DNA of 64,000 bases, taken from the NCBI GenBank assembly GCA_900318375.1, contig ONKG01000015.1:1-64000 (forward strand), written 5' to 3'. Below the pieces are notes generated by a model. That model worked only from the letters and a program-made list of their open reading frames with translations. It did not search any database and was not told the origin of the DNA. The DNA is from an uncultured Lachnospiraceae bacterium. GTDB lineage: Bacteria > Bacillota > Clostridia > Lachnospirales > Lachnospiraceae. A program made the position numbers and the translations under genes. This document shows positions 13,849 to 29,267 of this stretch, piece after piece (the first letter of the stretch is position 1; each line of letters opens with the position of its first letter).

Positions 13849-14802
13849 ATGGGTGATCTGATCAGTATTATCGTACCCTGCTATAACGAAGAGGAGTCGC
13901 TGCGGCTGTTTCATACGGCAGTGAAGAAGATGGAGAAGACCCTGCCGGACTGCAGGTTCGAGATCCTTCTGATCAATGACGGATCGAAGGACAAGACCGT
14001 GGAGGTCATGCGGGAACTGGCAGCAGAGGATCCGGAAGTCAGTTATTTCAGCTTTTCCAGAAATTTCGGCAAAGAGGCCGCCATGTTCGCAGGCTTTTGC
14101 AATGCGCGCGGGGATTACGCAGCGGTCATGGACGCAGACCTCCAGGACCCGCCTGATCTGCTGCCGGAGATGTATCGGATTCTGAAATCGGGCGAGTATG
14201 ACAGCGTCGCCGCGCGGCGTGTCAGCCGCGACGGAGAACCGCCCATACGGAGCTGGTTTGCCAGACGTTTTTACCGTCTGATCAACCGCATTTCAGAGGC
14301 TGATATCGTGGACGGCGCGCGGGATTTCCGCCTGATGAAGAGGGATATGGTGGACGCGATCCTGGCCATGGGAGAGTCGAACCGTTTTTCAAAGGGTATT
14401 TTCGGCTGGATCGGTTTCAGGACCTACTGGATGCCCTATAAAAATGTGGAACGGGTTGCCGGAGAGACCAAGTGGAATTTCTGGGGCCTTCTGGGGTATG
14501 CCATAGACGGCATTGTGAACTTCTCCCATGTGCCGCTCGATATTGCGTCGTGGTTCGGGATTCTGATGACCATGGTCTCCTTCCTGGCGATCATCTTCAT
14601 AGTGGTAAGAAAGCTCCTCTTCGGTGATCCTGTTGCGGGATGGGCTTCGACAGCATGTATCATCACATTTATCGGCGGAATCCAGCTGCTGTGTCTGGGT
14701 ATCATCGGAAAATATCTTGCTACTGTCTATCAGGAGGTCAAAAAACGACCTCATTACATCATCAGCGAGACGAGCCGGGACGACGCAAAAAGGATCGGAT
14801 GA
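13849..14802 (+). CDS. GT2 polyprenyl-phosphate glycosyltransferase, second copy
   Basis: This 317-residue homologue of the enzyme at 4194 has ISIIVPCYNEEESL, INDGSKDKT, FSRNFGKEAAMFAG and DADLQDPP, followed by ARDFRLMKR and two C-terminal spans (about 232-300). This is the GtrB/CsbB/DPM1 architecture that makes polyprenyl-phosphate sugar on the cytoplasmic face. The acceptor-site sequence differs from the first copy (DLQDPP against DLQQNP), so the two may differ in sugar or lipid. The ribosome-binding site (AAAAGGGACAG) is weak. It is the last gene of the 7.5-14.8 kb block. No second flippase gene is present, so the GtrA at 3651 may serve both sets. Confidence 0.92.
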   Translation: MGDLISIIVPCYNEEESLRLFHTAVKKMEKTLPDCRFEILLINDGSKDKTVEVMRELAAEDPEVSYFSFSRNFGKEAAMFAGFCNARGDYAAVMDADLQDPPDLLPEMYRILKSGEYDSVAARRVSRDGEPPIRSWFARRFYRLINRISEADIVDGARDFRLMKRDMVDAILAMGESNRFSKGIFGWIGFRTYWMPYKNVERVAGETKWNFWGLLGYAIDGIVNFSHVPLDIASWFGILMTMVSFLAIIFIVVRKLLFGDPVAGWASTACIITFIGGIQLLCLGIIGKYLATVYQEVKKRPHYIISETSRDDAKRIG

Positions 14803-14845
14803 CGTCACCGGGGTCCGGTCATTTGATAATGGAGTTTGAAAACAT

Positions 14846-16492
14846 ATGACTTTTCGAAAAAGACTGATGGTAATGTTTGCCACGGTCATCGTGGTGCCGA
14901 TCCTGCTGTTTGCCATATCATTTATGGCTCTGGGCAATTATCTGATCGGAGAAAAGGGAGAATTATCGGGCTATACGTCCATTGTCGGCAATTATGATAC
15001 GCTCGATGTAGACGCAGTGCAGGTGTTTCAGAAAGCGGAGCAGAACCCCGGAAGACTGCATGATGTGGAATTTCTGTCTTCTATTTCCCAGGGAATCCAC
15101 GACCGCAACAGTTATCTTATAGTCCGTCGGGACGAAGGACTCTACTTTGCCAGTGACGAGATGAAGGGGGCTGACGATCTTGCATATCTGCCCGCGTGGA
15201 AGGAAGACACTGCCGGAAAACTGCAGAGCGGAGAAATCCCGACAATGAATATGACCCTGCAGGATGGTCCTGCAGCAGAGCAGAGGGATGCGTCGAAGAC
15301 CGGAGACCAGGCCGGAAAAACAGGACAGCCGGTTGATCCGGCGGACACAGTGAGGGATGCGGCTGCGGACAGCCTGCAGGGAAACCAGCTGATTCAGGCA
15401 GGGAAGAAAAGCCTGCTGGTACGGCAGCTGGATTTCTGCTTTCCTGACGGAGCCCGGGGCAGCCTGTTTATTGTCAAGCGGGTCATGGGACTGATCTCCG
15501 GAAAATTCCTGAGCGGTCTGTTTGTCTCCATGCTGACGATATTGGTATTTACAGCCTTTCTGCTGACCCGATGGCTGGAGAGGAGTATTTTTACACCGAT
15601 CAGCGCGATCAACATCGCCATGAATAATATCCGCGACGGAAACTTCACCTATACACTCTCCACCGGAGAAGAGGGCGAGATCGGCGATCTTTACCGGAAT
15701 TATGAAGACATGCGTCTGCGCCTGAAGGAGTCTGCGGATGAAAAACTTGAGCGCGAAAAGCAGAACCGCGAGCTGATCAGTAATATTTCCCATGATCTGA
15801 AGACGCCGATCACGTCAATCAAGGGATATGTCGAGGGCCTGATCGACGGAGTAGCAAACACTCCGGAGAAGCGGGAAAAGTACATCCGGACCATCTACAA
15901 CAAGGCCAATGACATGGATCATCTGATCGACGAGCTGACCCTCTATTCCCGCTTTGAGAGCGATCGTATCCCTTACAATTTCCACCGCCTCGATGTCGGT
16001 GACTATTTCGGTGACTGTGTCGAAGAGATCGGCATGGATATGGAATCGAGAGGGATTGAGCTCAATTACACGAATCTTGTCTCTCCCAGGACCAGGATCA
16101 TTGCCGATCCCGAGCAGATGAAGCGTGTAATTAACAATATTGTGGGAAATAGTGTAAAATATATGGATAAGGAGAAGGGGCGGATCGATATCCGGATTCT
16201 CGATGAACACGACAGTGTCCGCATTGAGATCGAGGACAACGGCAAGGGAATTGCCGCCCGCGACCTTCCGAATATTTTTGACAGGTTCTACCGAACGGAT
16301 TCCTCCCGCAACTCCGCCCAGGGCGGCAGCGGGATCGGACTTTCCATTGTGCGCAAGATCATTGAAGACCACGGCGGATATATCTGGGCGACAAGCCGGG
16401 AGGGTGAGGGCACCTGTATGCACCTCGTGATCCGCAAGTATCTGGAGCAGGAGGACGAGACTGTGGACTCCATGCATGAAGAGATGATCTGA
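14846..16492 (+). CDS. Membrane sensor histidine kinase (HAMP-HisKA-HATPase)
   Basis: This 548-residue sensor has an N-terminal span (about 8-30), an extracytoplasmic domain of about 180 residues with a Gln/Asp/Ala-rich middle, a second span (about 222-245), a HAMP linker, and a kinase core. The phospho-acceptor His is in ISNISHDLKTPITS. The ATP-binding N box is NNIVGNSVKYMD, G1 is EDNGKGIA, and G2 is GGSGIGLSIV. The matching OmpR-type regulator follows 134 nt later. The pair resembles envelope-sensing systems, but the signal is not evident. It starts 43 nt after the glycosyltransferase gene and may share its transcript. Confidence 0.94.
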   Translation: MTFRKRLMVMFATVIVVPILLFAISFMALGNYLIGEKGELSGYTSIVGNYDTLDVDAVQVFQKAEQNPGRLHDVEFLSSISQGIHDRNSYLIVRRDEGLYFASDEMKGADDLAYLPAWKEDTAGKLQSGEIPTMNMTLQDGPAAEQRDASKTGDQAGKTGQPVDPADTVRDAAADSLQGNQLIQAGKKSLLVRQLDFCFPDGARGSLFIVKRVMGLISGKFLSGLFVSMLTILVFTAFLLTRWLERSIFTPISAINIAMNNIRDGNFTYTLSTGEEGEIGDLYRNYEDMRLRLKESADEKLEREKQNRELISNISHDLKTPITSIKGYVEGLIDGVANTPEKREKYIRTIYNKANDMDHLIDELTLYSRFESDRIPYNFHRLDVGDYFGDCVEEIGMDMESRGIELNYTNLVSPRTRIIADPEQMKRVINNIVGNSVKYMDKEKGRIDIRILDEHDSVRIEIEDNGKGIAARDLPNIFDRFYRTDSSRNSAQGGSGIGLSIVRKIIEDHGGYIWATSREGEGTCMHLVIRKYLEQEDETVDSMHEEMI

Positions 16493-16626
16493 ACCGGCCG
16501 CCGGGCACAGGACTCGTGAGCGAATCTCGAGTCATATGTTTGTGCGGGCGCGGGACCATGGCTTCAGGAATGACGTAGATGACAGACTGACCGTCTTACC
16601 GGAACGAACGGAAAAAGGAGAAATGA

Positions 16627-17316
16627 ATGAGCAGAATATTGATCATTGAAGATGAAGAGGCAATCGCAGACCTGGAAAAAGATTACCTGGAACTTTCCGG
16701 TTTTGAAGTGGAGATCGAGACCAGGGGCGACCGCGGCCTGACGGCGGCCCTGCAGAAGGATTTTGATCTGATTATACTGGACCTGATGCTTCCCGGCATC
16801 GATGGTTTTGATGTCTGCCGCAAGATCCGTGAGAAGAAGGATATTCCGATTCTGATGGTGTCGGCCAAGAAGGACGACATCGACAAGATCCGCGGTCTGG
16901 GTCTCGGCGCGGATGACTATATGACCAAGCCCTTCAGCCCCAGTGAGCTTGTCGCGCGGGTCAAGGCGCATATGGCACGCTATCAGCGTCTGGTCGGCGC
17001 CGGCCAGAAGACCAATGATGTTGTGGAGATCCGCGGCCTCAAGATCGACAAGACAGCCAGGCGTGTCTTTGTGGACGGCACGGAAAAGAACTTCACCACC
17101 AAGGAATTTGACCTGCTCACCTTTTTGGCGGAAAACCCCAACCATGTTTTCAGCAAGGATGAGCTTTTCCGCAGGATCTGGAACATGGACAGTGTGGGGG
17201 ATATTGCGACTGTCACAGTCCATATCAAAAAGATCCGTGAAAAGATTGAGTTTGACACCTCTCATCCGCAGTATATTGAGACCATCTGGGGTGTGGGATA
17301 CAGGTTCCGTGCATGA
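16627..17316 (+). CDS. OmpR/PhoB-type response regulator
   Basis: The 229-residue protein has a receiver domain with acidic pocket EDEE (8-11), phospho-acceptor Asp52 in LIILDLMLPG, the conserved Lys in DDYMTKPFS, and a C-terminal winged helix (about 130-229) ending IETIWGVGYRFRA. It is the cognate regulator of the kinase immediately upstream. Its TGA stop overlaps the ATG of rsuA (ATGA), so the two genes are translationally coupled. AAAGGAG precedes the start. Confidence 0.95.
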   Translation: MSRILIIEDEEAIADLEKDYLELSGFEVEIETRGDRGLTAALQKDFDLIILDLMLPGIDGFDVCRKIREKKDIPILMVSAKKDDIDKIRGLGLGADDYMTKPFSPSELVARVKAHMARYQRLVGAGQKTNDVVEIRGLKIDKTARRVFVDGTEKNFTTKEFDLLTFLAENPNHVFSKDELFRRIWNMDSVGDIATVTVHIKKIREKIEFDTSHPQYIETIWGVGYRFRA

Positions 17317-18197
17317 GTAAAAAAACAGACCGCAAAAAAGCGGCAGGGGCGGAGTCTGTACGCCTGGACAAACTGCTTGCGCAGGAGGGATTCGGCACGC
17401 GCAGTGAGCTGGGAAGAGCGATCCGTAAGGGCAGTGTCTGTGTGAACGGAGAGCATGTAAAGGATCCCGGCATGAAGGTGTCTTCGGAGGACGAGATTCT
17501 CTTCGACGGCAAAGCTGTCCGTCAGAAGGACCATGTTTACTATATGCTCCACAAACCTGCAGGTGTCGTCTCTGCCACGGAGGACGGCCGTGAAATGACA
17601 GTGCTGGATCTGCTGCGGAATCCTTCGGTCACAGGGACCGGGGCTGCCGGCGGTCCGGAGCGGGATCCCCTTTCAGAACCTGTGCTCAGGCGAGGTCTTT
17701 TTCCGGTGGGAAGACTGGACAAGGATACAGAGGGGCTTCTTCTGATCACTGATGACGGACAGCTGGCACATCGTCTGCTGTCGCCGGCAAGGCATGTGGA
17801 CAAGACTTATTATGCGATCGTGACAGGAAAAGTGACCGGGGAGGATATCCGGGCATTTGCGGAAGGGCTCGAGGTGGATGATGAGTTCACCGCCATGCCT
17901 GCGCGTCTGTGCACGGATCTGGAAGCGGACGCCGGAAGGGCCGCACTGATCCCGGGAAATCTCAGCGGGATACTGCCCGGCGGAACAGGCCAGTATTCAC
18001 AGACGATCGTCACGATCAAAGAGGGCAAATATCATCAGATCAAGCGGATGTTCGCTGCACGGGGGAAAGAAGTACTTTACCTCAAGCGCCTTAGCATGGG
18101 ACCGCTGTATCTCGATCCGGCTCTTGCGCCGGGCGGGTTCCGGCCGCTCAGGCAGGAGGAGATTGAGGCGCTTATGAAGGCAGACAATACGATATGA
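17313..18197 (+). CDS. rsuA: 16S rRNA pseudouridine synthase, RsuA/RluB family
   Basis: An N-terminal S4 RNA-binding domain (VRLDKLLAQEGFGTRSELG... about 16-70) is followed by the pseudouridine synthase core with the catalytic Asp in GRLDKDTEGLLL and the YHQIKRMF motif. Family members of this size (294 residues) modify U516 of 16S rRNA, while close relatives act on 23S rRNA, so the exact site is inferred. A Gly/Pro-rich insert (about 105-125) is slightly unusual. It overlaps the regulator gene by 4 nt and is itself overlapped by the reading frame of the next gene. Confidence 0.88.
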   Translation: MSKKTDRKKAAGAESVRLDKLLAQEGFGTRSELGRAIRKGSVCVNGEHVKDPGMKVSSEDEILFDGKAVRQKDHVYYMLHKPAGVVSATEDGREMTVLDLLRNPSVTGTGAAGGPERDPLSEPVLRRGLFPVGRLDKDTEGLLLITDDGQLAHRLLSPARHVDKTYYAIVTGKVTGEDIRAFAEGLEVDDEFTAMPARLCTDLEADAGRAALIPGNLSGILPGGTGQYSQTIVTIKEGKYHQIKRMFAARGKEVLYLKRLSMGPLYLDPALAPGGFRPLRQEEIEALMKADNTI

Positions 18198-18217
18198 ATT
18201 ATCTGGAGGATACTCGA

Positions 18218-20503
18218 ATGCGGGCTTCTTTCGTTCATAATAGATTTTTTAAGAACAAGGGACTATGTAAACGGATCATTGCACTGACAGCGGCTCTGGC
18301 TGCAGCTGTCTGTCTTCTGAGCGCCTGCGGACCGGAACCGGGTATAGACGGCGGAGCAGGGCAGGCTGAAGGCGGCGGAATGTTTCCCGGAGAGAATCCG
18401 GATACGTCAAACGGGAACGGCGCAGAAGCGGATGCAGGTTCCAAAGACGGGAAAAACGGCGCGCAGGAAGGTTCATCAGGAGAAGAAACGGCGGCAGACG
18501 GACATGCCGGCACTGGTCAGGAGGCTTTTGCCGATCCCGGCGCAAATACAACAGGCAGCGGTAATTCAGGATCTGCACTGACCGGCGCTGAGTCGGCAGA
18601 AGAGAACTATCCCGCCCGTCCGATCCAGGGCGAGATCACCCGGAGTGACGCACAGACACTTCAGACCCTGCAGGAATATCTGAATGAAGACAGCAGCTAC
18701 GGTTTTTTGCTGTCCTCTTACGATATCCCTGAGGATATTGACCTGAACCAGGTCTTCTATTCCGGGGCAGGGATTGAACAGGAAAAATTGACAGATCAGG
18801 AAAAAGACCTGCTTCTGGACAGGATCCCCCAGGAGGAGATCAGAACACCGGTCGTCAAGGTGGCAGATGATCAGATTGAAGATCTGCTGAGCCTTAAGAC
18901 AGGGCTTTCTTATGATAGGTTCAGAAAGCAGCTTGACGAAAAAGAGGGCTGGGTGCGTATAGCCAGATACCAGGCATGGTACGCGCTTCGCGGTGACACA
19001 AACCGGATGTATGTCCGGTGCACGGACGCCTGGCAGCAGGGAGATACGTTCATTGTCCACTATCAGCTGGAAGCGCAGGAGGGAGATATTGCGCAAGAGA
19101 CTGAGCAGGCCGTGACAGATTCAGTAGAAACCGATGTAGATGATGTGAGTAATGCAGGTGCTGAAAGCGCGGCGTCATCCGCGGCAGAAGTGGCGGAAAC
19201 TGCACAGAAAGGCGAAACTGCCGATCGTGCTGCAGTCTCAGACACTGCAGCCACAGCAGCTTCAGCAGTCTCAGACACTGCAGCCACAGCAGCATCAGCA
19301 GCCTCAGCCACAGCAGCCACAGCAGCTTCAGCAGCCTCAGATACTGCAGCCGCAGCAGATTCTGCTGATACAGCGGCCGAAGAAGCCGGTTCAGAGACTG
19401 CTGATACATCGGCCGCAGAGAGTGAGGAGAGCGCTGCAGCCGCGAATGATGCACTGTATCAGCCCACCTATGAAGTTGAACTGCAAAAGGCGGATGGCGG
19501 ATACCGCTTCTGCTATAACATCGTCTGGACACAGAAGGACCTCATTGAGGCACAGTCCTACAGCGCTGAACTCAATCCGGCGGGAGAGGTGTTTTTTGCT
19601 CCTTTCTATCCCGATACGAAAAAGAACGAAAAAGCGGATGTGACCTTTGCCCTGGAACAGGACCGGGCAATATTGGCAATCCTTGATCCCATAGAGGCGG
19701 GCAATATACGGACAGACCGGGTTTTTGCCGGCGTGGATGCTGTTGATTTTACAGATTACAACAAAGACGGATATACAGATATCCTGACAGTCTGCAGTTA
19801 TACACAGGTCGGTGAAGACGGAAAAAAGACCGGGAATGTGCGGGAAGCGAGAGTATATTCCGGACAGAAGGACGCGGTTCCCGCCCTTGACAGCACAAAG
19901 ACAGAGGCAGTTAATCGTGATGTTGAAGTGCTCAATATCACGAATGTGACCAGTTATCTGACCGGCAAAAATGACGGAACTGCGCAAAAATACAGTTCAT
20001 GGAAAGAAGCGTACGCCGACCGCATCAAGGGGATTGATGAGGAAGAATATGAAGGCTTTGCCCTGATTTATCTCAATGACGACCGCACACCGGAGCTGGT
20101 ACAGGTCGGTGCAACTGCTGCAAAGGGCGTGACCATAGTCGTCTACCGCAGCGGCACACTCGAGGAGACCTGGCTGAACCGCAGGGATTTCCAGTATCTG
20201 GAATATGAAAATCTTCTCTACAGCCCTTCCGGGGTGGAAAATCTGCACTTCGATACGATTTACAGTATTTCCGGCGGAAGACTCGGGGTCTCTGTACAGG
20301 GATATTACGGCAACAACAGCTTTGCCCGCGTGCGCTTTGACGAGAGGGGAGAGGAAGTCTGGGACTATTACTGGGAAGGCGGCCAGGTGTCAGAGAGCGG
20401 ATACCGCGACGGTCTAAGCTTCGTGTTTGATACAGCCAGAGCCAGGACCTGTAAAGGGGAACAGCTTCTGACAGCGGAGGAATTGCTGCAGCAGCTGCAA
20501 TAA
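18218..20503 (+). CDS. Lipoprotein with Ala-rich repeat linker and calcium-loop-like motif
   Basis: I do not recognise a family. The signal peptide ends in the lipobox LLSAC, so it is probably anchored outside the membrane. An acidic Gly/Asn linker follows, then a folded region (about 140-300), a ~90-residue Ala/Thr/Ser linker built of (D/A)TAATAASA repeats, and a C-terminal folded region. The last contains DYNKDGYTDIL, a calcium-loop motif of the FG-GAP/VCBS kind, and FALIYLNDDRTPEL. The frame is open from an ATG at 18194 that overlaps rsuA. ATG 18218 is preferred because GGAGGA lies 7 nt before it. The product is then 761 residues. Confidence 0.8.
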   Translation: MRASFVHNRFFKNKGLCKRIIALTAALAAAVCLLSACGPEPGIDGGAGQAEGGGMFPGENPDTSNGNGAEADAGSKDGKNGAQEGSSGEETAADGHAGTGQEAFADPGANTTGSGNSGSALTGAESAEENYPARPIQGEITRSDAQTLQTLQEYLNEDSSYGFLLSSYDIPEDIDLNQVFYSGAGIEQEKLTDQEKDLLLDRIPQEEIRTPVVKVADDQIEDLLSLKTGLSYDRFRKQLDEKEGWVRIARYQAWYALRGDTNRMYVRCTDAWQQGDTFIVHYQLEAQEGDIAQETEQAVTDSVETDVDDVSNAGAESAASSAAEVAETAQKGETADRAAVSDTAATAASAVSDTAATAASAASATAATAASAASDTAAAADSADTAAEEAGSETADTSAAESEESAAAANDALYQPTYEVELQKADGGYRFCYNIVWTQKDLIEAQSYSAELNPAGEVFFAPFYPDTKKNEKADVTFALEQDRAILAILDPIEAGNIRTDRVFAGVDAVDFTDYNKDGYTDILTVCSYTQVGEDGKKTGNVREARVYSGQKDAVPALDSTKTEAVNRDVEVLNITNVTSYLTGKNDGTAQKYSSWKEAYADRIKGIDEEEYEGFALIYLNDDRTPELVQVGATAAKGVTIVVYRSGTLEETWLNRRDFQYLEYENLLYSPSGVENLHFDTIYSISGGRLGVSVQGYYGNNSFARVRFDERGEEVWDYYWEGGQVSESGYRDGLSFVFDTARARTCKGEQLLTAEELLQQLQ

Positions 20504-20663
20504 AAGGACTCTGTGACGTTCCCCGCCGGATGCAGGAAAGGAGCAGCCTGAAAACCGCCGGCAGGAAATGATCCATCAACGAACCATTAACCATTAATTC
20601 ATTAACTATTGTACGGAAACCATTGTACGGATTAACATTGTCTTTGACAGAAAGGAGCCGGAT

Positions 20664-22766
20664 ATGTTCTGTATTAAATGCGGGAATAATATTCCGGAGG
20701 GAAACCGTTTCTGCCCTGTATGCGGAGAGCCGGCGGAGATAGAACTCAACCCGGAAGACAGGACACTGACGTCCTATGACGGAAATCAGGGACATTCGGA
20801 AGGTATAGAAGAAGGCGGCTTCGTAAAACAGGGATTCAATAATGCCGACCGCAGGGATCAGGGAATGTACGGCGGTCAGTCTTACGGAGACGGCAGAGAC
20901 TACGGCGGACAGGGAATGTACGGCGGTCAGTCTTACGGAGACGGCAGGGATTACGGCGGCCGGGAAATGTACGTCAGCCGGCCTTACGGAGACGGCAGAG
21001 AGAACAGCGGCAGCCGGCCCTATAGTGGTGGAAGGGACCGCAGACAGAGCGGAAACAAGGGAAAGGGCAAATCGATCATCATAATCGTTCTCCTTGTCAT
21101 CATTGCCATTCTGCTGGGCCTTGTAGCCTTCTCCCTGCTGCACTCCAAAGACGGGACAGATGATAAAGATACAGCGGATCAGAGAACCGAAACCAAACAG
21201 GAAGAGGATGATACCGACACCGGGGGCGGAAATCAGGATACCGGCGCTACCGACACCGGGGGCGGAAACCAGAATACCGGCGGCAGTGACACCGGAGGCG
21301 GAAACCAGAACACCGGCGGAAGTGACACCGGAGGCGGAAACCAGAACACCGGCGGAAGTGACACCGGAGGCGGAAACCAGAACACCGGCGGTACCGACAC
21401 CGGAGGCGGAAACGACACCGGAGGAAAAAACACAGAGGCCGTTTCTTATGACTCTATCCGGAACAGTGTCTATAATTCCGGCGGCTCGGAGGGGACTTCC
21501 CTGGAACTGGTCACGACAGATGTCTCCGGGTATCCGAATGTAAAAGCCTATTATCGTCTTGAGGATTCTTATGGCGAGACGATCATCCTGGACTCTCCCA
21601 CAGCCGGCATCACGGAGGCTGTCTCGGGAGGTGCGCAGATCGAAAGAAAGATCCGCAGCATCGAGCGCCTGGAAGGAAATCAAGGTCTGGGGATGGATAT
21701 TGTCGTCGATAAATCCGACAGTATGGAGAGTGATTTTGCACAGGTCCAGTCCATCCTGAATGACTTTATCCGCAGCATGGACTATGCGTCCGGGGATGCG
21801 GCAGAAATCATTGCCTTCGACAGCTATATCATGTATATGTGCAGTTACACCAATGAGATGTCCAATCTTTTGAACGGCATCGATAACATGAGCACCTATG
21901 GAATGACTGCGCTGTATGACGCGCTCTGGACAGGCGTCACCAATGCCGGACGCCGGACCGGCGCCAACTGCGTGATCGGCTTTACAGACGGCGCGGACAA
22001 CGAAAGCACACATACCTATGAAGAGGTGATCAGCCTCGCGAACTCACTGGAGATTCCGATTTACCTCATCGGCACTTCAGGCGCGGATTATACCGTTCTG
22101 AATTATATCTGCGAATCGACGGGCGGCCGATGCTGGGACATCAATTCGATCCAGGATATGAATGATATCCTCAGCGAGATCTATAAGGTACAGAAAAACA
22201 TGTACTGTATTGAATATGTCTCGGACAACTCCGTGGATGCCTATGCGACCAGAACGGTTTCCGCAGCGCTCATCGACAATAACAGGCAGGTCGGCGGAGT
22301 CTCCGAGGGAGTCACATTCACACCTGCAAAGCGTGCGGAACAGAAAAAACACAGTACACGTTATGAACTGGTCAAAAAGGACATCAGCTGGACGGATGCC
22401 AACGACGCCTGCCTGGCCCAGGGCGGCCATCTGGCGACGATCACCTCACAGGAGGAAATGGACAAGATAACAGCTGCGGCGGAAAAAGCAGGGATCAAGT
22501 TTCTCTGGATCGGCGGATACACCTCTGTGCGTGACAACACAGTATACGGTCATTGGCTGACCGGTGAGCCTTTTGACTTCACCGCCTGGCATCCAGGAGA
22601 GCCTTCCAGAAACGACAAGCTTGACGGCGAGCCCGAATTCTACCTCATGCTCTGGAGCGTCTCGGAAGACGGGAAATGGACCTGGAACGACCAGCGAAAC
22701 GACGTCCTGAACATCGGTCTCGATTATTTCACCGGCAATATGGGCTACGTCTGCGAGTATGAATAA
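20664..22766 (+). CDS. Zinc ribbon-TM-VWA-C-type-lectin-like surface protein
   Basis: The 700-residue protein has an unusual domain string. An N-terminal zinc ribbon has two CxxC pairs (CIKCG and CPVCG). A Gly/Tyr/Arg repeat region (about 68-130) contains GGQSYGDGRDYG twice. One membrane span (about 139-160) follows, then five to six copies of a 12-residue repeat TDTGGGNQNTGG (about 190-252). A VWA domain comes next (MIDAS VDKSDSMES near 350, FTDGADNES near 440). A C-terminal C-type-lectin-like domain (about 565-700) has WTDANDACLAQGGHLATITS, FLWIGGY, WTWND and GYVCEYE. The ribbon should be cytoplasmic and the VWA/lectin part outside. Ligand unknown. AAAGGAG lies 7 nt before the ATG. Confidence 0.85.
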   Translation: MFCIKCGNNIPEGNRFCPVCGEPAEIELNPEDRTLTSYDGNQGHSEGIEEGGFVKQGFNNADRRDQGMYGGQSYGDGRDYGGQGMYGGQSYGDGRDYGGREMYVSRPYGDGRENSGSRPYSGGRDRRQSGNKGKGKSIIIIVLLVIIAILLGLVAFSLLHSKDGTDDKDTADQRTETKQEEDDTDTGGGNQDTGATDTGGGNQNTGGSDTGGGNQNTGGSDTGGGNQNTGGSDTGGGNQNTGGTDTGGGNDTGGKNTEAVSYDSIRNSVYNSGGSEGTSLELVTTDVSGYPNVKAYYRLEDSYGETIILDSPTAGITEAVSGGAQIERKIRSIERLEGNQGLGMDIVVDKSDSMESDFAQVQSILNDFIRSMDYASGDAAEIIAFDSYIMYMCSYTNEMSNLLNGIDNMSTYGMTALYDALWTGVTNAGRRTGANCVIGFTDGADNESTHTYEEVISLANSLEIPIYLIGTSGADYTVLNYICESTGGRCWDINSIQDMNDILSEIYKVQKNMYCIEYVSDNSVDAYATRTVSAALIDNNRQVGGVSEGVTFTPAKRAEQKKHSTRYELVKKDISWTDANDACLAQGGHLATITSQEEMDKITAAAEKAGIKFLWIGGYTSVRDNTVYGHWLTGEPFDFTAWHPGEPSRNDKLDGEPEFYLMLWSVSEDGKWTWNDQRNDVLNIGLDYFTGNMGYVCEYE

Positions 22767-22794
22767 AACAGCGAGCGGAATCCGGATGTTCGGA

Positions 22795-22842
22795 GCATTG
22801 CGAGAGCGCCGGAGCGCGGAGCTATGCCTGGTTATATTCATA
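22795..22842. repeat. Dispersed hairpin element, copy A
   Basis: A GC-rich imperfect palindrome, GCATTGCGAGAGCGCC...GGAGCTATGC, is followed by TTATATTCATA. It resembles the stretch at 23918-23964. Both copies lie just downstream of a gene stop. Confidence 0.45.
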
Positions 22843-23011
22843 AAAAAAACAAACAGCGGGAAAAGCCGGGGGAGCATCATGCTTGCATGAACGCTCAAGA
22901 GGCCTTTCCTGTCTGTTATCAGTTCGGTATTTATAAAATGCTGAAATAGTGATAATATGTTCCGAACAGGTCCTGTCACAGTGAGGCAGGATAGAAAGGA
23001 ATTAAGTAAAA

Positions 23012-23890
23012 ATGAGAATCATCGACATCCTGAACGAAAAGAAAGTTACACTGTCGTTTGAAGTATTTCCGCCCAAGACAGAAGCGGGTATTCTGACCGT
23101 CGAACAGGCGACAGAACAGATTGCGGCGCTCGGACCTGATTTTATGAGTGTCACCTACGGCGCCGGCGGCGGTACAAGCAGGCATACCACCAGGATCGCT
23201 GCGGATCTGCAGCAGAAATATCATACGAACGTGCTCGCGCACCTCACCTGTGTCTCGTCTACGAAGGAGACTGTCAGAAAGATGATCGAGACCTATCGTG
23301 AGAACGGGATTGAGAATATCATGGCTCTGCGCGGAGATATCCCGGCAGAAGGCAGGACTGTATTTGATTACGATCACGCCTCGGAGCTGATCTATGATAT
23401 CAAGGCCATCGATGAAAATATGTGTATCGGAGGAGCCTGCTATCCGGAAGGACACGTGGAATGCGAGCGCCAGTCTGATGACATCCGTCACCTCAAGGAA
23501 AAAGTGGATGCGGGCTGTGACTTTCTGACGACTCAGATGTTTTTTGACAACTCAACAATGTACAGCTTCCTTTACCGGATCCGCGAGGCGGGGATCGAGG
23601 TGCCTGTCGTGGCAGGAATCATGCCGATCACAAACGCCGGTCAGGTCAAACGCAGCGTAGCTCTTTCCGGGGCCACGATTCCCCAGCGCTTCCGCACCAT
23701 GGTCGACCGTTTCGGTGACGACCCCCTGAGTATGAAACAGGCGGGTATCGTATACGCTGCGGAGCAGATCGTCGATCTGATCGCAAACGATGTGGGCCAT
23801 ATCCATGTCTACACCATGAACAAGCCGGAAATCGCGTCAGGAATCCGCAACAGCCTCTCTGCCTTGTGGGGAATTTCTCTGACTGAGTAA
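23012..23890 (+). CDS. metF: 5,10-methylenetetrahydrofolate reductase
   Basis: The FAD-dependent enzyme reduces methylene-THF to methyl-THF, the methyl donor for MetH encoded 1 kb downstream. The 292-residue length is normal. Family motifs are FEVFPPKT near the start, the THF/FAD-site FMSVTYGAGGG, HLTCVSSTKE, IMALRGDIP, FLTTQMFFDN and VVAGIMPI. AGAAAGGAATT precedes the ATG. A strong terminator follows at 24023, so it may be transcribed apart from the two methionine synthase genes. Confidence 0.97.
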   Translation: MRIIDILNEKKVTLSFEVFPPKTEAGILTVEQATEQIAALGPDFMSVTYGAGGGTSRHTTRIAADLQQKYHTNVLAHLTCVSSTKETVRKMIETYRENGIENIMALRGDIPAEGRTVFDYDHASELIYDIKAIDENMCIGGACYPEGHVECERQSDDIRHLKEKVDAGCDFLTTQMFFDNSTMYSFLYRIREAGIEVPVVAGIMPITNAGQVKRSVALSGATIPQRFRTMVDRFGDDPLSMKQAGIVYAAEQIVDLIANDVGHIHVYTMNKPEIASGIRNSLSALWGISLTE

Positions 23891-23917
23891 GGCTGGCCGG
23901 GACGTTTTTACGGCATA

Positions 23918-23964
23918 CCATTGCGGGAACGCCATAGCGCGGAGCAATGCGTAGTTTATTCATA
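23918..23964. repeat. Dispersed hairpin element, copy B
   Basis: CCATTGCGGGAACGCC, AGCGCGGAGCAATGC and TTTATTCATA match copy A at 22795-22842 with several substitutions. It lies downstream of metF. Confidence 0.45.
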
Positions 23965-24022
23965 CATGACTGCGGGTACGAGACCATGACTGGAAACATG
24001 TATGAGAAAAGGATCATCCGGG

Positions 24023-24059
24023 AGTGTGACAGAAGACAGGCGCTTCTGTCACACTTTTT
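24023..24059 (+). terminator. Intrinsic terminator after metF
   Basis: A perfect 13-bp stem, AGTGTGACAGAAG (24023-24035) with CTTCTGTCACACT (24043-24055), is followed by TTTTT. Confidence 0.93.
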
Positions 24060-24098
24060 GTGAGATACAAACCGCTTATTTCAAGTGGAGAGATATAT

Positions 24099-24848
24099 AT
24101 GATCAATGTTGATAAAAAAGAAATCTACCGTTATCTTGGTTATCGAAGGAATATGCCGGATGCGGAAGTCTTAAGGACTGTGGACTACTGCCTCGGGGAA
24201 CTGCAGCGGGAGATCACGCCCCGTTTTGTTTACCGTCAGTATCCCGTGGAGAGTGTCTTTACCATGCCCGGTATGCAGTCACATGATACGGGAATTTCGC
24301 TGCGGACGGAAAAGGGTGCCGGTATTTCTTCGGACCGGAAAAAGGGGCCGCAGATTCCTCTGCTCCGTATCGCGGGGATGGAAATCCGCAGTCTTAGCCT
24401 ATCCCGGAATCTTCGCGGGTGTGAAAATGTATATCTGATGGCGGCAACGCTGGGGCTGGGACCGGACCGGCTGATCGCGAGGGCAAGTGTCACGCACATG
24501 AGCCGCGCCGTGATCCTGCAGGCAGCGGCAGCAGCCATGATCGAATCCTGGTGTGACGAGGTCAATCAGAGGATCATCGATGAGGCGGCTTCGCAGGGGC
24601 TCTACTGCAGGCCTCGTTTTTCGCCCGGTTACGGGGATTTCCCACTGGAGTATCAGCAGGATTTTGCGCAGATTCTGCGCATGCAGAAAGAAATAGGCGT
24701 ATCTCTGACAGAAAGCTGCCTTATGATGCCCTCCAAGTCGGTGACGGCTGTCATCGGCATCACAAAGGAGAAGCAGGGATGTGTACTGCACGGCTGCGAA
24801 GTATGTGAGAATTCATCGGAGTGTGCGTTTTCCAGAAATGGAGTATAG
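24099..24848 (+). CDS. Free-standing MetH activation-domain protein
   Basis: This 249-residue protein matches the C-terminal reactivation domain of cobalamin-dependent methionine synthase, which uses S-adenosylmethionine to remethylate oxidised cob(II)alamin. The signature RPRFSPGYGDFPLEYQ (about 173-188) is the SAM/cobalamin-contact motif of that domain. A Cys-rich end (GCEVCENSSECAFS) is seen. The frame is open from a GTG at 24060. ATG 24099 is preferred because GTGGAGAG lies just upstream. The metH-type gene begins 8 nt after the stop and its product lacks this domain, so the two polypeptides should act together. Confidence 0.9.
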   Translation: MINVDKKEIYRYLGYRRNMPDAEVLRTVDYCLGELQREITPRFVYRQYPVESVFTMPGMQSHDTGISLRTEKGAGISSDRKKGPQIPLLRIAGMEIRSLSLSRNLRGCENVYLMAATLGLGPDRLIARASVTHMSRAVILQAAAAAMIESWCDEVNQRIIDEAASQGLYCRPRFSPGYGDFPLEYQQDFAQILRMQKEIGVSLTESCLMMPSKSVTAVIGITKEKQGCVLHGCEVCENSSECAFSRNGV

Positions 24849-24855
24849 AAGATTT

Positions 24856-27471
24856 ATGACAGAAAAAGGAACAGGAAAAGTCAGAAGGCCTCTTCTGGAG
24901 CGCCTGGGTAAAGAATGGCTGTTTTTTGACGGCGGGACAGGGACGATTCTGCAGGAAAAGGGCCTGAAGGGAGGCGAACTTCCGGAGAGGTGGAATCTTT
25001 CACGTCCTGAGGACATTATCGATCTGCACTGCGGATATCTGAAGGCGGGGTGTGATATTTTCAACACCAATACTTTCGGGGCGAATTCGCTGAAGTTTTC
25101 CCGGGAGAACGGCGAGCTGAAGCAGATCGTCGAGGCGGCGGTTGCCCTGGCAAAGGAGGCGCGGCGCCGCACGGACCGTGAGGATGCCTATATTGCCCTG
25201 GATATCGGACCGACAGGACGCCTTCTGGAGCCTCTGGGGGATCTTTCTTTCGAGCGCGCGGTGGAGATTTTCGGAGAAGTTGTGCGAATCGGCGCGGCGG
25301 CGGGTGCAGACCTGGTGCTGATCGAGACTATGAGCGACAGCTATGAATCCAAAGCAGCTGTTCTTGCCGCAAAGGAAAACTGTGACCTCCCCGTTCTGAT
25401 CACCAATGTCTATGACAGCAGCGGCAAGCTCCTGACAGGCGGCACAGTGGATTCCACGGTCGCGCTGCTGGAGGGCCTGCGCGTGGACGGTCTGGGTGTC
25501 AACTGCGGTATGGGACCGGAGCAGATGATTCCGATCGTGCAGCGGATGGTCGAAACGGCTTCCGTGCCCATTCTTGTCAATCCCAATGCGGGTCTTCCCC
25601 GCGCGGAAAACGGCAGGACGGTCTACGATGTCGGCCCCGAGACCTTTGCGGACTGGATGAAAAAAATCGCCGGAATGGGCGTGCAGGCCGTCGGCGGCTG
25701 CTGCGGTACGACACCCGAACATATACGGAGAACTGTACAGGCAGTCAGAGGCACTGCGTGCCTGCCCGGTGAACCCGGCAAAGCTGCAGAGGTAGCAGGC
25801 GGAAGCGGTGCGGAAACCGCAGCAGAGCGGGGGGTTCCTTTTGTACCCAATACCAGGAAAGGCCGCACAGTGGTCTCCTCTTTCTCCCGGGCTGTGGAAA
25901 TCGGCAAAAAGCCTGTCATCATCGGCGAGCGGATTAATCCGACCGGAAAGAAGAAGTTCAAGCAGGCTCTGCGCGACAACGACATCGAATATATCCTTTC
26001 GGAGGGACTCAATCAGGAGGAGAGCGGTGCCCACATCCTGGACGTCAATGTCGGACTCCCTGAGATCGATGAACCGCAGATGATGGCGGAAGTTGTCTCC
26101 AGGCTGCAGAGTATTCTGCCCCTGCCGCTGCAGATCGACACATCGGATCCGGCTGCCATGGAGCGCGGCATGCGCCTCTACAACGGCAAGCCCATGGTGA
26201 ACTCTGTAAACGGCAAAAAAGAGAGCATGGAGGCTGTTTTCCCGCTGGTCAGGAAATACGGCGGCGTAGTCGTGGGTCTGGTATTGGACGAGGACGGGAT
26301 TCCGGAGACAGCAGACGGTCGTATGGCAATTGCAAAGAAGATTTATGAGACCGCGGACCGTTACGGTGTGCCCCGCGAGGATATCGTGATCGACGGCCTT
26401 GCAATGACCATTTCCTCTGATACGAAGGGCGCGCTGACGACCCTGGAGACTCTGCGCCGCGTCCGGGATGAGCTTGACGGTCACACCATTCTGGGAGTGT
26501 CCAATATTTCCTTCGGTTTGCCTCAGCGGTCCGTTATCAATGCGCATTTTCTGACTATGGCCATGCAGATGGGGCTTTCCTGCGCCATCATGAATCCGGG
26601 AAATGAGGATATGATGTGTGCCTATCGCGCCTTTCTGGCACTCTCAGACATGGATCCGCAATGCATGGGCTATATAGAGGCATACGCAAATGCACAGAGA
26701 ACGACAGTGACAGCAGCGGCAAAAGCCGGCAGCGGGAGCAGTGCTGCAGGTCCTTCAGATAAAACAGGGACCAGCCCGGGAGGAACGTCTGCCGAAGGGA
26801 CGGCCGGGGGGCCGGCTCTTCCGGATTCTGCAGGAATGTCCCTGGGCGACAGCATCCGCAGAGGTATGTCAAAGAGCGCAGCCGATGCGGCAAGGGTCCT
26901 GCTTGAAGCCGGGACGCCGGCCTTGAGGCTTATTAATGAGGAACTGATTCCGGCCCTTGATTATGTCGGCAAAGGTTTTGAGAAGGGCACCATCTTCCTG
27001 CCCCAGCTTCTTATGAGCGCGGAGGCAGCCAAAGCGGCTTTTGAAGTCGTCAAAGAGTCCATGCAGGACGAAAAACAGGAGACAAAGGGCAGGATCATCC
27101 TTGCCACTGTCAAAGGAGACATCCACGATATCGGCAAGAACATCGTCAAGGTCATGCTGGAAAACTACAGCTTTGAAATCATCGACCTGGGAAAGGATGT
27201 CGCCCCGGAGACCATTGTGGAGACGGCGATCCGCGAGAACATTTCTCTCGTGGGTCTCAGTGCTCTTATGACGACTACTGTCGTCAGCATGGAGGACACC
27301 ATCCGTCTGCTCCGTGAAAAGAAACCGGATACAAAGGTCGTTGTCGGCGGCGCAGTCATGACGCAGGAATACGCCGATTCCATCGGCGCCGACTGCTATG
27401 CGCCGGACGCTATGGCTACCGTTCACTTTGCGGAAGAGGTTTTCGCGCGTTCAGACCATACCGCTTCCTAG
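24856..27471 (+). CDS. metH: Cobalamin-dependent methionine synthase lacking the activation domain
   Basis: The enzyme transfers methyl from methyl-THF to homocysteine through cobalamin. In order, the 871-residue protein has a homocysteine-binding barrel (FFDGGTGTILQE; Zn ligands in GVNCGMG and VGGCCGTTP), a pterin-binding barrel (GERINPTGKKKFKQAL near 380), the cobalamin-binding cap and a Rossmann B12 domain with KGDIHDIGKN carrying the axial His. A low-complexity Gly/Ser/Ala linker (about 615-665) separates the pterin and cap domains. The reactivation domain is absent and encoded just upstream. The frame is open from 24781, inside the preceding gene. ATG 24856 is chosen on GGAG spacing; ATG 24838 is an alternative. 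Confidence 0.95.
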   Translation: MTEKGTGKVRRPLLERLGKEWLFFDGGTGTILQEKGLKGGELPERWNLSRPEDIIDLHCGYLKAGCDIFNTNTFGANSLKFSRENGELKQIVEAAVALAKEARRRTDREDAYIALDIGPTGRLLEPLGDLSFERAVEIFGEVVRIGAAAGADLVLIETMSDSYESKAAVLAAKENCDLPVLITNVYDSSGKLLTGGTVDSTVALLEGLRVDGLGVNCGMGPEQMIPIVQRMVETASVPILVNPNAGLPRAENGRTVYDVGPETFADWMKKIAGMGVQAVGGCCGTTPEHIRRTVQAVRGTACLPGEPGKAAEVAGGSGAETAAERGVPFVPNTRKGRTVVSSFSRAVEIGKKPVIIGERINPTGKKKFKQALRDNDIEYILSEGLNQEESGAHILDVNVGLPEIDEPQMMAEVVSRLQSILPLPLQIDTSDPAAMERGMRLYNGKPMVNSVNGKKESMEAVFPLVRKYGGVVVGLVLDEDGIPETADGRMAIAKKIYETADRYGVPREDIVIDGLAMTISSDTKGALTTLETLRRVRDELDGHTILGVSNISFGLPQRSVINAHFLTMAMQMGLSCAIMNPGNEDMMCAYRAFLALSDMDPQCMGYIEAYANAQRTTVTAAAKAGSGSSAAGPSDKTGTSPGGTSAEGTAGGPALPDSAGMSLGDSIRRGMSKSAADAARVLLEAGTPALRLINEELIPALDYVGKGFEKGTIFLPQLLMSAEAAKAAFEVVKESMQDEKQETKGRIILATVKGDIHDIGKNIVKVMLENYSFEIIDLGKDVAPETIVETAIRENISLVGLSALMTTTVVSMEDTIRLLREKKPDTKVVVGGAVMTQEYADSIGADCYAPDAMATVHFAEEVFARSDHTAS

Positions 27472-27506
27472 AGCGGCATCCGCGGGAAAAATTAAGTCAA
27501 AAAACA

Positions 27507-27555
27507 AACTCTGCAGAATCCAGGACATGGAGAGAGGATTCTGCAGAGTTTTTTT
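27507..27555 (+). terminator. Intrinsic terminator after metH
   Basis: AACTCTGCAGAATCC (27507-27521) pairs perfectly over 15 bp with GGATTCTGCAGAGTT (27536-27550), followed by a T run to 27555. Confidence 0.95.
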
Positions 27556-27679
27556 GAGCGGCAGGATAACCGGCGGAAAACATACACAAGTGCTCATCAG
27601 TTTACAGCTGCAGGCGCGGGCACACCGTCGACCAGGTGCTTTCATGCGTTCTCCGCATGCGAGCTTCCAAACAGGACAG

Positions 27680-27706
27680 TTCACATTTGTTCACAATTGT
27701 TTCACG
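27680..27706 (+). promoter_or_regulatory. Direct-repeat operator candidate upstream of citrate synthase
   Basis: TTCACATTTG (27680), TTCACAATTG (27690) and TTTCACG (27700) form a 10-bp-periodic direct repeat ending 20 bp before the -35 hexamer. One-turn spacing on one DNA face is typical of an activator or repressor site. No regulator is assigned. Confidence 0.4.
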
Positions 27707-27725
27707 AAATATTGGCCGAAAACCA

Positions 27726-27754
27726 TTGAATAAAAAAATACCAGACGGTAAAAT
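27726..27754 (+). promoter_or_regulatory. Sigma-A-type promoter for citrate synthase
   Basis: TTGAAT (27726-27731), a 17-bp A-rich spacer and TAAAAT (27749-27754). The implied leader of about 160 nt consists mainly of the 20-bp repeat array. Confidence 0.7.
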
Positions 27755-27786
27755 AAACTTTCTGAATTAATACAGTACTACTGATT

Positions 27787-27906
27787 TTGACGGATATTAC
27801 ATGTAATGAACGGATATTTCAAGTAATGAACGGATATTTCAAGTAATGAACGGATATTTCAAGTAATGAACGGATATTTCAAGTAATGAACGGATTTTAC
27901 AAGCAG
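27787..27906 (+). repeat. Six 20-bp tandem units in the citrate synthase leader
   Basis: Units begin at 27787, 27807, 27827, 27847, 27867 and 27887. Units two to five are identical (TGAACGGATATTTCAAGTAA). The first and last are diverged. Each junction reads TAATG, so every core unit contains a complete mini-frame, ATG AAC GGA TAT TTC AAG TAA, overlapping the next by one base. The array ends immediately before AAAGGAGG and the gene start. There are no spacers, so it is not a CRISPR array. Confidence 0.95.
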
Positions 27907-27920
27907 TGAAAGGAGGCGCT

Positions 27921-29267
27921 TTGGGAAAGAAATTTGAGAAGATGTTTAAGGAATATGCCGTCTCGCAGATGGGAAGGTGTGTGAAGAATGATACGATTCC
28001 GGATGCGCTCTTCCAGCACTATGAGGTAAATCGGGGACTGAGAGACCTCGACGGTAAGGGCGTCCTCACAGGCCTGACGAACATTTCGGAGATCATCTCC
28101 TTTGAGGAGAAGGACGGGAAGAGGATCCCGATCGACGGACAGCTCTGGTATCGGGGCTACACTGTGGAAAATCTGATCAGAATGTTTGCCGATGACAGGT
28201 TTGCCTATGAGACTCTGACTTACCTGCTCCTGTTCGGAGAGCTTCCGAATGAGCAGGAGAAGAAGGACTTTATTGAGATCCTCGCAGGCGCCAGGGACCT
28301 CCCCACAAACTTTGTCCGCGATGTCATCATGAAAGCGCCGACAAAGGATGTCATGAATTCCATGACCAGAAGTATCCTGACCCTGGCTTCCTATGATTCC
28401 CATGCCCAGCAGACGGACCTGCCCAATGTCATCCGCCAGAGCATTATGCTGATCGCGGTATTTCCCATGCTGGCAATTTACGGCTATCACGCTTATAATC
28501 ATTATGAGAACATGGAGAGCATGTACATTCACAGGCCGGATCCGGAGCTTTCCACTGCGGAGAATATCCTGATGATGATGCGCCCCGACCAGCAGTTCAC
28601 AGAGACAGAGGCAAAGGTTCTCCAGGCGGCCCTGCTCCTGCATATGGAACACGGCGGAGGAAATAACTCCACTTTCACCACACGTGTGGTCACCTCTTCC
28701 GGCAGCGATACCTATGCGACGATCGCAGCGGCCATGTCTTCACTCAAGGGTCCCAGGCACGGCGGTGCCAATATCAAGGTCATGGAGATGATGGACAACA
28801 TCCGCAAAAAGGTCCGCGACTGGAACGACGATGATGAGATCGACGCCTATCTTTCCAAAATGCTGAAGGGCGTCGTCTTTGATCATAAAGGGCTGATCTA
28901 CGGAATGGGACACGCAGTCTATTCGCTCTCGGATCCCCGTGAGCGCGTGTTCAAATCCTTTGTTGAACGCCTGAGCGTAGAGAAGGGGCGCCAGACAGAT
29001 ATGGCTCTCTACCAGAAGATTGAAGACATAGCGCCCAGGGTCATCGCGCGCGAACGCCGGATCTACAAGGGTGTCAGCCCCAACGTCGACTTCTACAGCG
29101 GATTCGTCTACGATATGCTCGGCATCCCGATCGAGCTCTACACGCCGATTTTCGCGCTGGCCCGTATCACCGGCTGGAGCGCTCACCGCATCGAAGAGAT
29201 TGTCGGCAGGGGCAAGATTCTGAGACCCGCCTACATGAGTGTCATGAAACGGATCGACGAACAGTAA
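27921..29267 (+). CDS. gltA: Citrate synthase
   Basis: The enzyme condenses oxaloacetate and acetyl-CoA to citrate, here probably feeding glutamate synthesis in an anaerobe. The 448-residue protein has the citrate synthase blocks GQLWYRGYTVENLI, HMEHGGGNNSTFTTR, GPRHGGANIKVME, YGMGHAVYSLSDPR and NVDFYSGFVYDMLGIP, which include the active-site His and Asp residues. A GTG at 27906 would extend the frame but lies before AAAGGAGG. TTG 27921, 4 nt after that site, gives the natural N-terminus MGKKFEKMF. Upstream are a good promoter and the repeat leader. Confidence 0.93.
   Translation: MGKKFEKMFKEYAVSQMGRCVKNDTIPDALFQHYEVNRGLRDLDGKGVLTGLTNISEIISFEEKDGKRIPIDGQLWYRGYTVENLIRMFADDRFAYETLTYLLLFGELPNEQEKKDFIEILAGARDLPTNFVRDVIMKAPTKDVMNSMTRSILTLASYDSHAQQTDLPNVIRQSIMLIAVFPMLAIYGYHAYNHYENMESMYIHRPDPELSTAENILMMMRPDQQFTETEAKVLQAALLLHMEHGGGNNSTFTTRVVTSSGSDTYATIAAAMSSLKGPRHGGANIKVMEMMDNIRKKVRDWNDDDEIDAYLSKMLKGVVFDHKGLIYGMGHAVYSLSDPRERVFKSFVERLSVEKGRQTDMALYQKIEDIAPRVIARERRIYKGVSPNVDFYSGFVYDMLGIPIELYTPIFALARITGWSAHRIEEIVGRGKILRPAYMSVMKRIDEQ

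What the first reader, a model, noticed from the sequence alone, without database searches (positions are those of the whole stretch)
20664..22766. Zinc ribbon-TM-(TDTGGGNQNTGG)n-VWA-C-type lectin fusion
A cytoplasmic zinc ribbon and Gly/Tyr/Arg repeats on one side of a single span, with a flexible repeat stalk, VWA and C-type-lectin-like domain outside, is an architecture I do not know as a described system. The lectin-like fold is best known from animals and from bacterial/phage diversity-generating systems, but no reverse transcriptase or template repeat is seen nearby. It may link surface ligand binding to an inner signal.
Basis: partly seen in the sequence, partly recalled or inferred. 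Interest (0 to 1): 0.7.

Follow-up and report, generated by a model that had tools for sequence, protein, structure and literature searches.

The report
Clostridial lectin protein near cell-wall enzymes
Some clostridial bacteria carry a membrane protein with a predicted metal-binding tail inside the cell and an integrin-like plus lectin-like head outside, and in most of the relatives found its gene sits beside a gene for an enzyme that probably trims cell-wall sugars outside the cell, so it may help sense or handle pieces of cell wall.

Summary
Window 20664-22766 encodes a 700-aa protein: predicted cytoplasmic zinc ribbon, one span, repeats, a beta-sandwich/VWA unit and a C-terminal C-type lectin domain (CTL), all three domains above their Pfam cut-offs. 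The repeats are not conserved; residues ~279-700 are, in 14 lineages found here. The VWA metal-site and CTL calcium-site residues are the same in all 14.

The main addition is gene context. In 10 of 14 lineages (8 of 12 if the close L030-L032 count once) the gene adjoins a NagZ-type GH3 beta-N-acetylglucosaminidase with an export-type N-terminus, on either side. Of 30 NagZ loci sampled the other way, none had a CTL or VWA gene within 1.5 kb. One genome has the parts as separate genes in a cluster with NagZ and an N-acetylmuramoyl-L-alanine amidase. The window copy is not linked to NagZ; its genome has one elsewhere. No diversity-generating retroelement was found.

Best reading: a surface glycan receptor or adaptor in cell-wall turnover. 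The zinc ribbon-span-ectodomain chassis is already described with YARHG and NTF2-like domains, so this is a new variant of a known kind.

The parts
20651..20657 (+). Ribosome-binding-site-like AAAGGAG before the ATG
   Evidence: Read directly from the sequence
20664..22766 (+). Gene for the 700-aa zinc ribbon-TM-VWA-CTL protein
   Evidence: Open frame with start and stop and homologues of the same string
20667..20732 (+). Zinc ribbon (C3, C6, C17, C20), predicted cytoplasmic
   Evidence: PF13240 above cut-off; CxxC...CxxC in 13 of 14 lineages, absent in L029
20859..21001 (+). Gly/Tyr/Arg tandem repeat, 51-bp unit, not conserved
   Evidence: TRF; not seen in the 8 relatives
21072..21140 (+). 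Single transmembrane helix, residues ~137-159, N-in/C-out by charge
   Evidence: Hydropathy and charge; helix in the single-sequence model
21212..21431 (+). Low-complexity stalk, 36-bp repeat, not conserved in sequence
   Evidence: TRF; linkers of 13 relatives differ
21498..21671 (+). Beta strands before the VWA (residues ~279-336), first half of an inferred beta-sandwich
   Evidence: AlphaFold2 model of the module
21690..22184 (+). VWA domain (residues ~343-507) with MIDAS residues D349, S351, S353, T415, D442
   Evidence: PF00092; these residues invariant in 14 rows of A3 and in L094, L095; Foldseek matches to VWA structures
22200..22319 (+). Beta strands after the VWA (residues ~513-552), second half of the inferred beta-sandwich
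   Evidence: Model
22356..22763 (+). C-type lectin domain (residues ~565-700) with E646, S648 (EPS), E658, N675, D676 (WND)
   Evidence: PF00059, PDB sequence matches; these residues invariant in 14 rows of A3 and in L094, L095; their role as the calcium site is recalled
18194..20503 (+). Upstream lipoprotein-like gene with FG-GAP-like segment; neighbour, not shown to act with the lectin protein
   Evidence: Pfam FG-GAP only below cut-off; present before metF in same-genus genomes without the lectin gene

Best explanation
It is a membrane-anchored surface receptor or adaptor. The zinc ribbon is in the cytoplasm, one span crosses the membrane, a flexible stalk carries the head into or through the wall, and the head is a VWA unit set in a beta-sandwich plus a C-type lectin domain with calcium-site residues. 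Most likely mechanism: the lectin domain binds a GlcNAc-containing cell-wall glycan (muropeptide or glycan strand end) in a calcium-dependent way, the VWA metal site holds a second partner (a wall protein, or the exported NagZ or amidase), and so the protein keeps wall-degrading enzymes and their substrate together at the membrane, or reports muropeptides to the inside through the zinc-ribbon tail. Shown: domain string, topology signals, conserved metal-site residues, repeated gene linkage to NagZ-type enzymes in relatives. Inferred: ligand, calcium dependence, partner binding, any signal.
For: A NagZ-type GH3 gene adjoins the module gene in 10 of 14 distinct lineages: downstream in L034 (with its near-copies L026, L033), L028, L029, L030, L031, L032, L078, L094; upstream in L050 and L051. 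In 9 of the 10 the called ORFs overlap or lie 15-35 bp apart; in L051 the gap is about 80 bp counted from the Met before the zinc ribbon. L030-L032 are 73-87% identical, so a strict count is 8 of 12. The six enzymes scanned match PF00933 at 243-285 bits; the one searched against the PDB (L031) has a GH3 GlcNAcase and B. subtilis YbbD/NagZ as best relatives. Their N-termini look like lipoprotein or membrane signals by eye. Specificity: NagZ is within the held flank (about 1.5 kb, sometimes cut by a contig end) of 4 of 25 loci with a CTL but no VWA in the same ORF (L007, L067, L077 and the contig-end fragment L097), and of 0 of 28 loci with the VWA but no CTL in the same ORF (these lists hold two duplicate pairs, L002/L021 and L008/L088). 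Reverse control: 0 of 30 NagZ loci (30 of 80 listed matches, 120 Lachnospiraceae-level genomes) have a CTL or VWA gene within 1.5 kb. L160 holds ZnR-TM-CTL, ZnR-TM-VWA-YARHG, Amidase_3 (E 1.1e-40), a small ZnR gene, NagZ and ZnR-TM on one strand. Relatives of that amidase also lie beside the VWA gene of L080 and third downstream of the module gene in L104. In B. subtilis AmiE and NagZ degrade muropeptides outside the cell (PMC5061867, passages). YARHG, another ectodomain on this chassis, was proposed to bind peptidoglycan (PMC3355149, passages). The window's genome has a NagZ of this type on another contig.
Against: The window copy itself has no NagZ in the 64-kb window, nor do L027, L052 or L053 in the stretches held; L053 has only the amidase. 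Most CTL-only loci (21 of 25) show no NagZ in the flank held. On the tree NagZ linkage is scattered: 5 changes, no better than shuffled labels, so loss or repeated gain is common and many inner branches are weak. No ligand, binding or expression data exist. The enzymes score below the cut-off of NCBIfam's beta-N-acetylhexosaminidase model (167-196 against 207 bits in four scanned). NagZ could serve foreign glycans (chitin, mucin, other bacteria) rather than the cell's own wall. The lectin part of the model is of low confidence.
Confidence: 0.5

Rival explanations
1. Adhesin: the VWA and lectin heads bind glycans or proteins of plant fibre, mucus, or other microbes; the zinc ribbon is only part of the membrane anchor.
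For: VWA and CTL are classic adhesion folds (recalled); stalks vary in sequence; two record titles of relatives name ruminant gut samples (L028 sheep jejunum, L034 roe deer omasum) and the RUG names are rumen genomes by recall; the gene is accessory in the window's genus, missing between the lipoprotein gene and metF in four related genomes.
Against: Does not predict the repeated NagZ linkage or the NagZ/amidase cluster. The lectin domain is well conserved across families (44 of 136 positions invariant in 14 rows), which is not what a host-facing adhesin under pressure would lead one to expect (inference). No C-terminal wall-anchor signal is visible by eye: the protein ends with the lectin domain.
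Confidence: 0.27
2. Transmembrane signal protein or membrane-tethered regulator: ligand binding outside changes the state of the zinc-ribbon tail, which contacts nucleic acid or a protein partner inside.
For: Proposed in print for the same chassis with YARHG and with NTF2-like ectodomains (PMC3355149, PMC3924330, passages). CTLs are fused to Ser/Thr kinase domains in two proteins of the window's genome (L167, L168) and in L073.
Against: The cytoplasmic part here is a short zinc ribbon plus low-complexity repeats, with no enzymatic or clear DNA-binding domain. L029 lacks the zinc ribbon and begins with a signal peptide-like stretch yet keeps the whole head and the NagZ neighbour, so the tail is dispensable in one lineage.
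Confidence: 0.18
3. Variable protein of a diversity-generating retroelement.
For: The C-type lectin fold is used by DGR variable proteins (PMC7159879, passages).
Against: Two PF00078 matches in the 82%-complete genome, on other contigs, both with a QGG..SP motif not typical of DGRs (motif reading recalled). No template-like repeat of 22440-22766: next best match is 19 bases. Lectin residues are conserved, not variable.
Confidence: 0.02

Closest known systems
Zinc ribbon-TM-YARHG proteins (Coggill and Bateman 2012, PMC3355149, passages read)
   Same: Intracellular zinc ribbon, central span, extracellular domain, Gram-positive bacteria, peptidoglycan proposed as ligand, sister kinase fusions
   Different: Ectodomain is VWA + C-type lectin instead of YARHG; one VWA relative (in L160) does end in YARHG. 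The words lectin and VWA do not occur in that paper's main text
Zinc ribbon fused to NTF2-like DUFs (DUF4878 and others; PMC3924330, passages read)
   Same: Zinc ribbons inside, ligand domain outside; operon links to peptidoglycan hydrolases; regulatory role proposed
   Different: Different ectodomain fold; links there are to NlpC/P60 enzymes, here to NagZ and Amidase_3
B. subtilis NagZ (YbbD)/AmiE extracellular muropeptide degradation (PMC5061867, passages read)
   Same: Neighbour enzyme is related to YbbD/NagZ, and an amidase recurs in L160
   Different: No C-type lectin or VWA protein in the passages read; the amidase here is Amidase_3, not shown to be an AmiE orthologue
Animal C-type lectins and VWA receptors (mannose receptor family, integrins, ITIH1)
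   Same: CTL sequence match; ITIH1 and integrins among the Foldseek rows shown
   Different: Bacterial, one chain combining both; descent not tested
PASTA-type Ser/Thr kinases (recalled)
   Same: Membrane receptor idea; CTL-kinases occur in the same genome
   Different: No kinase domain in this protein

Membership tests
Zinc ribbon-TM-ectodomain class | N-terminal CxxC...CxxC zinc ribbon | tested here: met
   PF13240 over cut-off; motif in 13 of 14 lineages
Zinc ribbon-TM-ectodomain class | Single span with ligand-type domain outside | tested here: met
   One strong hydrophobic stretch with positive side before it in the window protein. By the same crude charge count several relatives (for example L030, L101, L103) have a reversed bias, so the topology call is weaker for them
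YARHG family | YARHG domain PF13308 | tested here: not met
   No PF13308 among matches at E<=1
VWA domain proteins | VWA fold with MIDAS DxSxS...T...D | tested here: met
C-type lectin domain proteins | Lectin_C sequence family | tested here: met
   PF00059 over cut-off; PDB sequence hits
C-type lectin domain proteins | Predicted fold is a C-type lectin | tested here: inconclusive
   Low pLDDT in the long-loop region; no lectin in the 50 rows shown
C-type lectin domain proteins | Calcium-dependent sugar binding | not testable with these tools
   Site residues present; binding needs an experiment
DGR variable proteins | DGR reverse transcriptase and template repeat | tested here: not met
   genome 82% complete, so absence is not final
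Known anti-phage defence proteins | Match to a PADLOC model | tested here: not met
   0 families at E<=0.01
TIGR03436 acidobacterial VWA family | Score above curated cut-off 81.25 | tested here: not met
   51.7 bits
NCBIfam PRK05337 beta-N-acetylhexosaminidase (the neighbour enzyme) | Score above curated cut-off 207 | tested here: not met
   167.3-196.4 bits in four scanned; related, called NagZ-type only

The most novel reading that the evidence does not exclude
Clostridia use a C-type lectin-plus-VWA receptor to recognise their own wall fragments: the lectin domain is a muropeptide receptor that hands substrate to, or controls, an exported NagZ, with CTL kinases of the same genomes reading the same glycans. 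C-type lectins would then be bacterial self-wall receptors and not only animal or phage recognition domains.
Probability: 0.33. Interest if true: 0.75.

Novelty: new variant of a known kind. Interest (0 to 1): 0.52.

Why it matters
To my knowledge (recalled, not searched exhaustively) bacterial C-type lectin domains outside phages and diversity-generating elements have few assigned roles. A repeated gene link between such a lectin receptor and NagZ- or amidase-type enzymes gives a concrete, testable ligand class (muropeptides), and it adds a lectin branch to the zinc ribbon-span-ectodomain proteins that were proposed to sense the wall.

Tried and rejected
Single-sequence structure prediction of the whole protein gave pLDDT 36 and was not used. 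Structural support for the lectin fold was sought and not obtained. Relatives in viral contigs: none by a single-protein scan, which finds close relatives only; in phages and plasmids only partial matches, 6 and 5 records, 0 covering 80% of the query. I considered that the upstream lipoprotein is a fixed partner, because L029 and L051 have an FG-GAP-like domain fused to the module: rejected, since those fused domains match each other but not the lipoprotein and the lipoprotein is kept in same-genus genomes where metF follows without the lectin gene. TcaA-like membership was considered from memory only; the one VWA sister protein scanned for it (L079) gave no TcaA family at E<=0.01. Rfam: 0 matches at gathering score in 14000-31000. 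Promoter and terminator scans of 20300-23100 gave no site that frames the gene on the + strand. Literature: ten paper searches ran; none of the titles, abstract starts or passages I saw describes VWA plus C-type lectin on this chassis; the library holds only open-licence papers and I read passages of six papers, no whole text.

Rows dropped before counts: L048 is a copy of L028; L026 and L033 were folded into the L034 lineage (the lectin end of L033 is out of frame); L095 ends at a contig edge beside the gene and was not counted for NagZ; L005, L006 and L049 are the window gene itself. L035-L045 match only the zinc ribbon or other short stretches. The reverse control looked only 1.5 kb to each side, and two of its 30 loci (L151, L156) are cut short by a contig end; one (L132) belongs to the L160 cluster, whose lectin and VWA genes lie further out. 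Of the lipoprotein loci L111-L124, four show metF next to it, L113 has another ORF between, and the rest were not resolved (metF not in the flank or not found).

Full report
Observation. The reading frame 20664-22766 codes for 700 residues. Pfam places a zinc ribbon at 2-23, VWA at 346-495 and Lectin_C at 574-651, each above its curated cut-off. A sequence search of solved structures finds C-type lectins over residues ~565-680 (best whole-chain E 1.6e-18; single-domain lectin mosGCTL-20 5.3e-8; 60 of 98 rows seen). There is one strong hydrophobic stretch at ~138-156 with net charge +5 before it and -2 after, so the zinc ribbon is predicted inside and the rest outside. Two tandem repeats are real at DNA level but are not seen in the homologues.

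Family. A genome-contig scan gave 20 loci, 9 of which (L026-L034) carry the C-terminal module at 50-63% identity in the best segment. A profile of the module found it full length in 6 of 397 genomes of the family, 2 of 392 of the order and 3 of 391 of the class, own genome counted each time and the samples overlapping (E limits 1e-20, 1e-20, 1e-40). After folding near-copies together there are 14 lineages; L030, L031 and L032 are still 73-87% identical. In 60 relatives, 36 of them from the same genus, no other genome has more than partial matches. The gene is rare and patchy. Four same-genus loci (L111 of G008, L112 of G010, L114 of G011, L115 of G014) have the upstream lipoprotein gene followed by metF with no match to the lectin gene; G018 has an unrelated ORF there; the other lipoprotein loci were not resolved. 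So the lectin gene is accessory at this site. The nearest relative on the tree is L034, an Oscillospiraceae record, with modest support (91/84).

Head. In 14 aligned rows (window plus 13) and in L094 and L095 the MIDAS residues and the positions that correspond to a calcium site in C-type lectins (EPS, E658, WND; correspondence recalled) are invariant. Invariant positions: lectin 44 of 136, VWA 37 of 165, strands before 5 of 58, strands after 3 of 40. The module model (9 rows, mean pLDDT 71.6) shows strands before and after the VWA, consistent with a VWA inserted in a beta-sandwich; Foldseek ranks ITIH1 first and also lists integrins and ANTXR VWA domains (50 of 1323 rows seen). The lectin part is not well modelled.

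Modules are swapped. The same searches return zinc ribbon-TM proteins with the VWA but another C-terminus (for example L054-L064, L079), zinc ribbon-TM proteins with the lectin alone (for example L007, L070, L072, L074, L087), and Ser/Thr kinases with a lectin domain (L073; L167 and L168 in the window's own genome). L029 keeps the head but replaces the zinc ribbon and span by a signal peptide-like start and an FG-GAP-like domain; L051 adds a similar domain after the lectin.

Neighbourhood. An all-against-all comparison of flanking ORFs showed one widely recurrent partner, a GH3 enzyme with an export-type N-terminus by eye. All six copies scanned match PF00933 strongly; NCBIfam's best model for the four scanned is beta-N-acetylhexosaminidase PRK05337 at 167-196 bits, below its cut-off of 207, so they are NagZ-type by relationship, not certified members of that equivalog. 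The best PDB relatives of the L031 copy are a GH3 GlcNAcase and B. subtilis YbbD/NagZ. It adjoins the module gene in 10 of 14 lineages, or 8 of 12 with L030-L032 as one; window, L027, L052 and L053 lack it. In two lineages it is upstream instead of downstream. Of 25 loci with a lectin ORF lacking the VWA, 4 have NagZ in the flank held (L007, L067, L077, L097); of 28 loci with a VWA ORF lacking the lectin, none has. Starting from NagZ, 30 loci out of 80 listed matches in 120 genomes were examined: none has a lectin or VWA gene within 1.5 kb, and two have a zinc ribbon-TM gene (L132, L134). L132 lies in the L160 cluster, where zinc ribbon-TM-CTL, zinc ribbon-TM-VWA-YARHG, an Amidase_3 lipoprotein-like gene, a small zinc ribbon gene, NagZ and another zinc ribbon-TM gene follow one another on one strand. 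That is the split form of the fusion. Relatives of that amidase occur beside VWA gene L080 and near module gene L104; three further matches, in L054 and L065, are weak (E about 1e-6 to 1e-5). Linkage is not clustered on the tree.

Reading. NagZ and AmiE of B. subtilis act in turn on muropeptides outside the cell (PMC5061867, passages). The most economical account is that the head binds wall glycan fragments and works with these enzymes. This is an inference from gene neighbours. It is weakest for the window copy, which has no NagZ within its 64 kb, although the genome has a NagZ of this type on another contig.

What is known. The chassis is described: 73 YARHG proteins with zinc ribbons and a central span, proposed as tethered signalling proteins with peptidoglycan as the likely ligand (PMC3355149, passages), and NTF2-like domains with zinc ribbons and operon links to wall peptidases (PMC3924330, passages). 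I found no paper describing VWA plus C-type lectin on it (searches; open-licence library only). Hence a new variant of a known kind.

Noticed in passing
L167:780-3257 (G000:C66), L168:839-3262 (G000:C164), L073:259-1983: Ser/Thr kinase-C-type lectin proteins, two in the window's own genome (L167 also with a MucBP match) and one in G165: receptor-like kinases with a lectin where PASTA domains usually sit (recalled).
   Followed up: partly
L160:5074-12592: One-strand cluster of ZnR-TM-CTL, ZnR-TM-VWA-YARHG, Amidase_3, small ZnR gene, NagZ and ZnR-TM gene.
   Followed up: yes
window 18194-20503: Lipoprotein-like gene with a 33-bp Ala-rich DNA repeat (19232-19362) and FG-GAP-like segment; found in 18 of 40 relatives besides the own genome at E<=1e-5; function unknown.
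   Followed up: partly
L001:958-2082: C-type lectin-OmpA-type protein with a signal peptide-like start (by eye) in the window's genome.
   Followed up: no
L047:1-2370: Reverse transcriptase with a C-terminal extension of several hundred residues, no group assigned beyond the QGG..SP motif.
   Followed up: no
window 24060-24848 and 24781-27471: Apparent split methionine synthase: a separate reactivation-like gene directly before metH (names recalled from sequence, no family search run).
   Followed up: no
H3-H6 (Flavobacterium phages immuto): Phage protein annotated lectin C-type domain-containing, about 30% identical to the lectin end of this protein.
   Followed up: no
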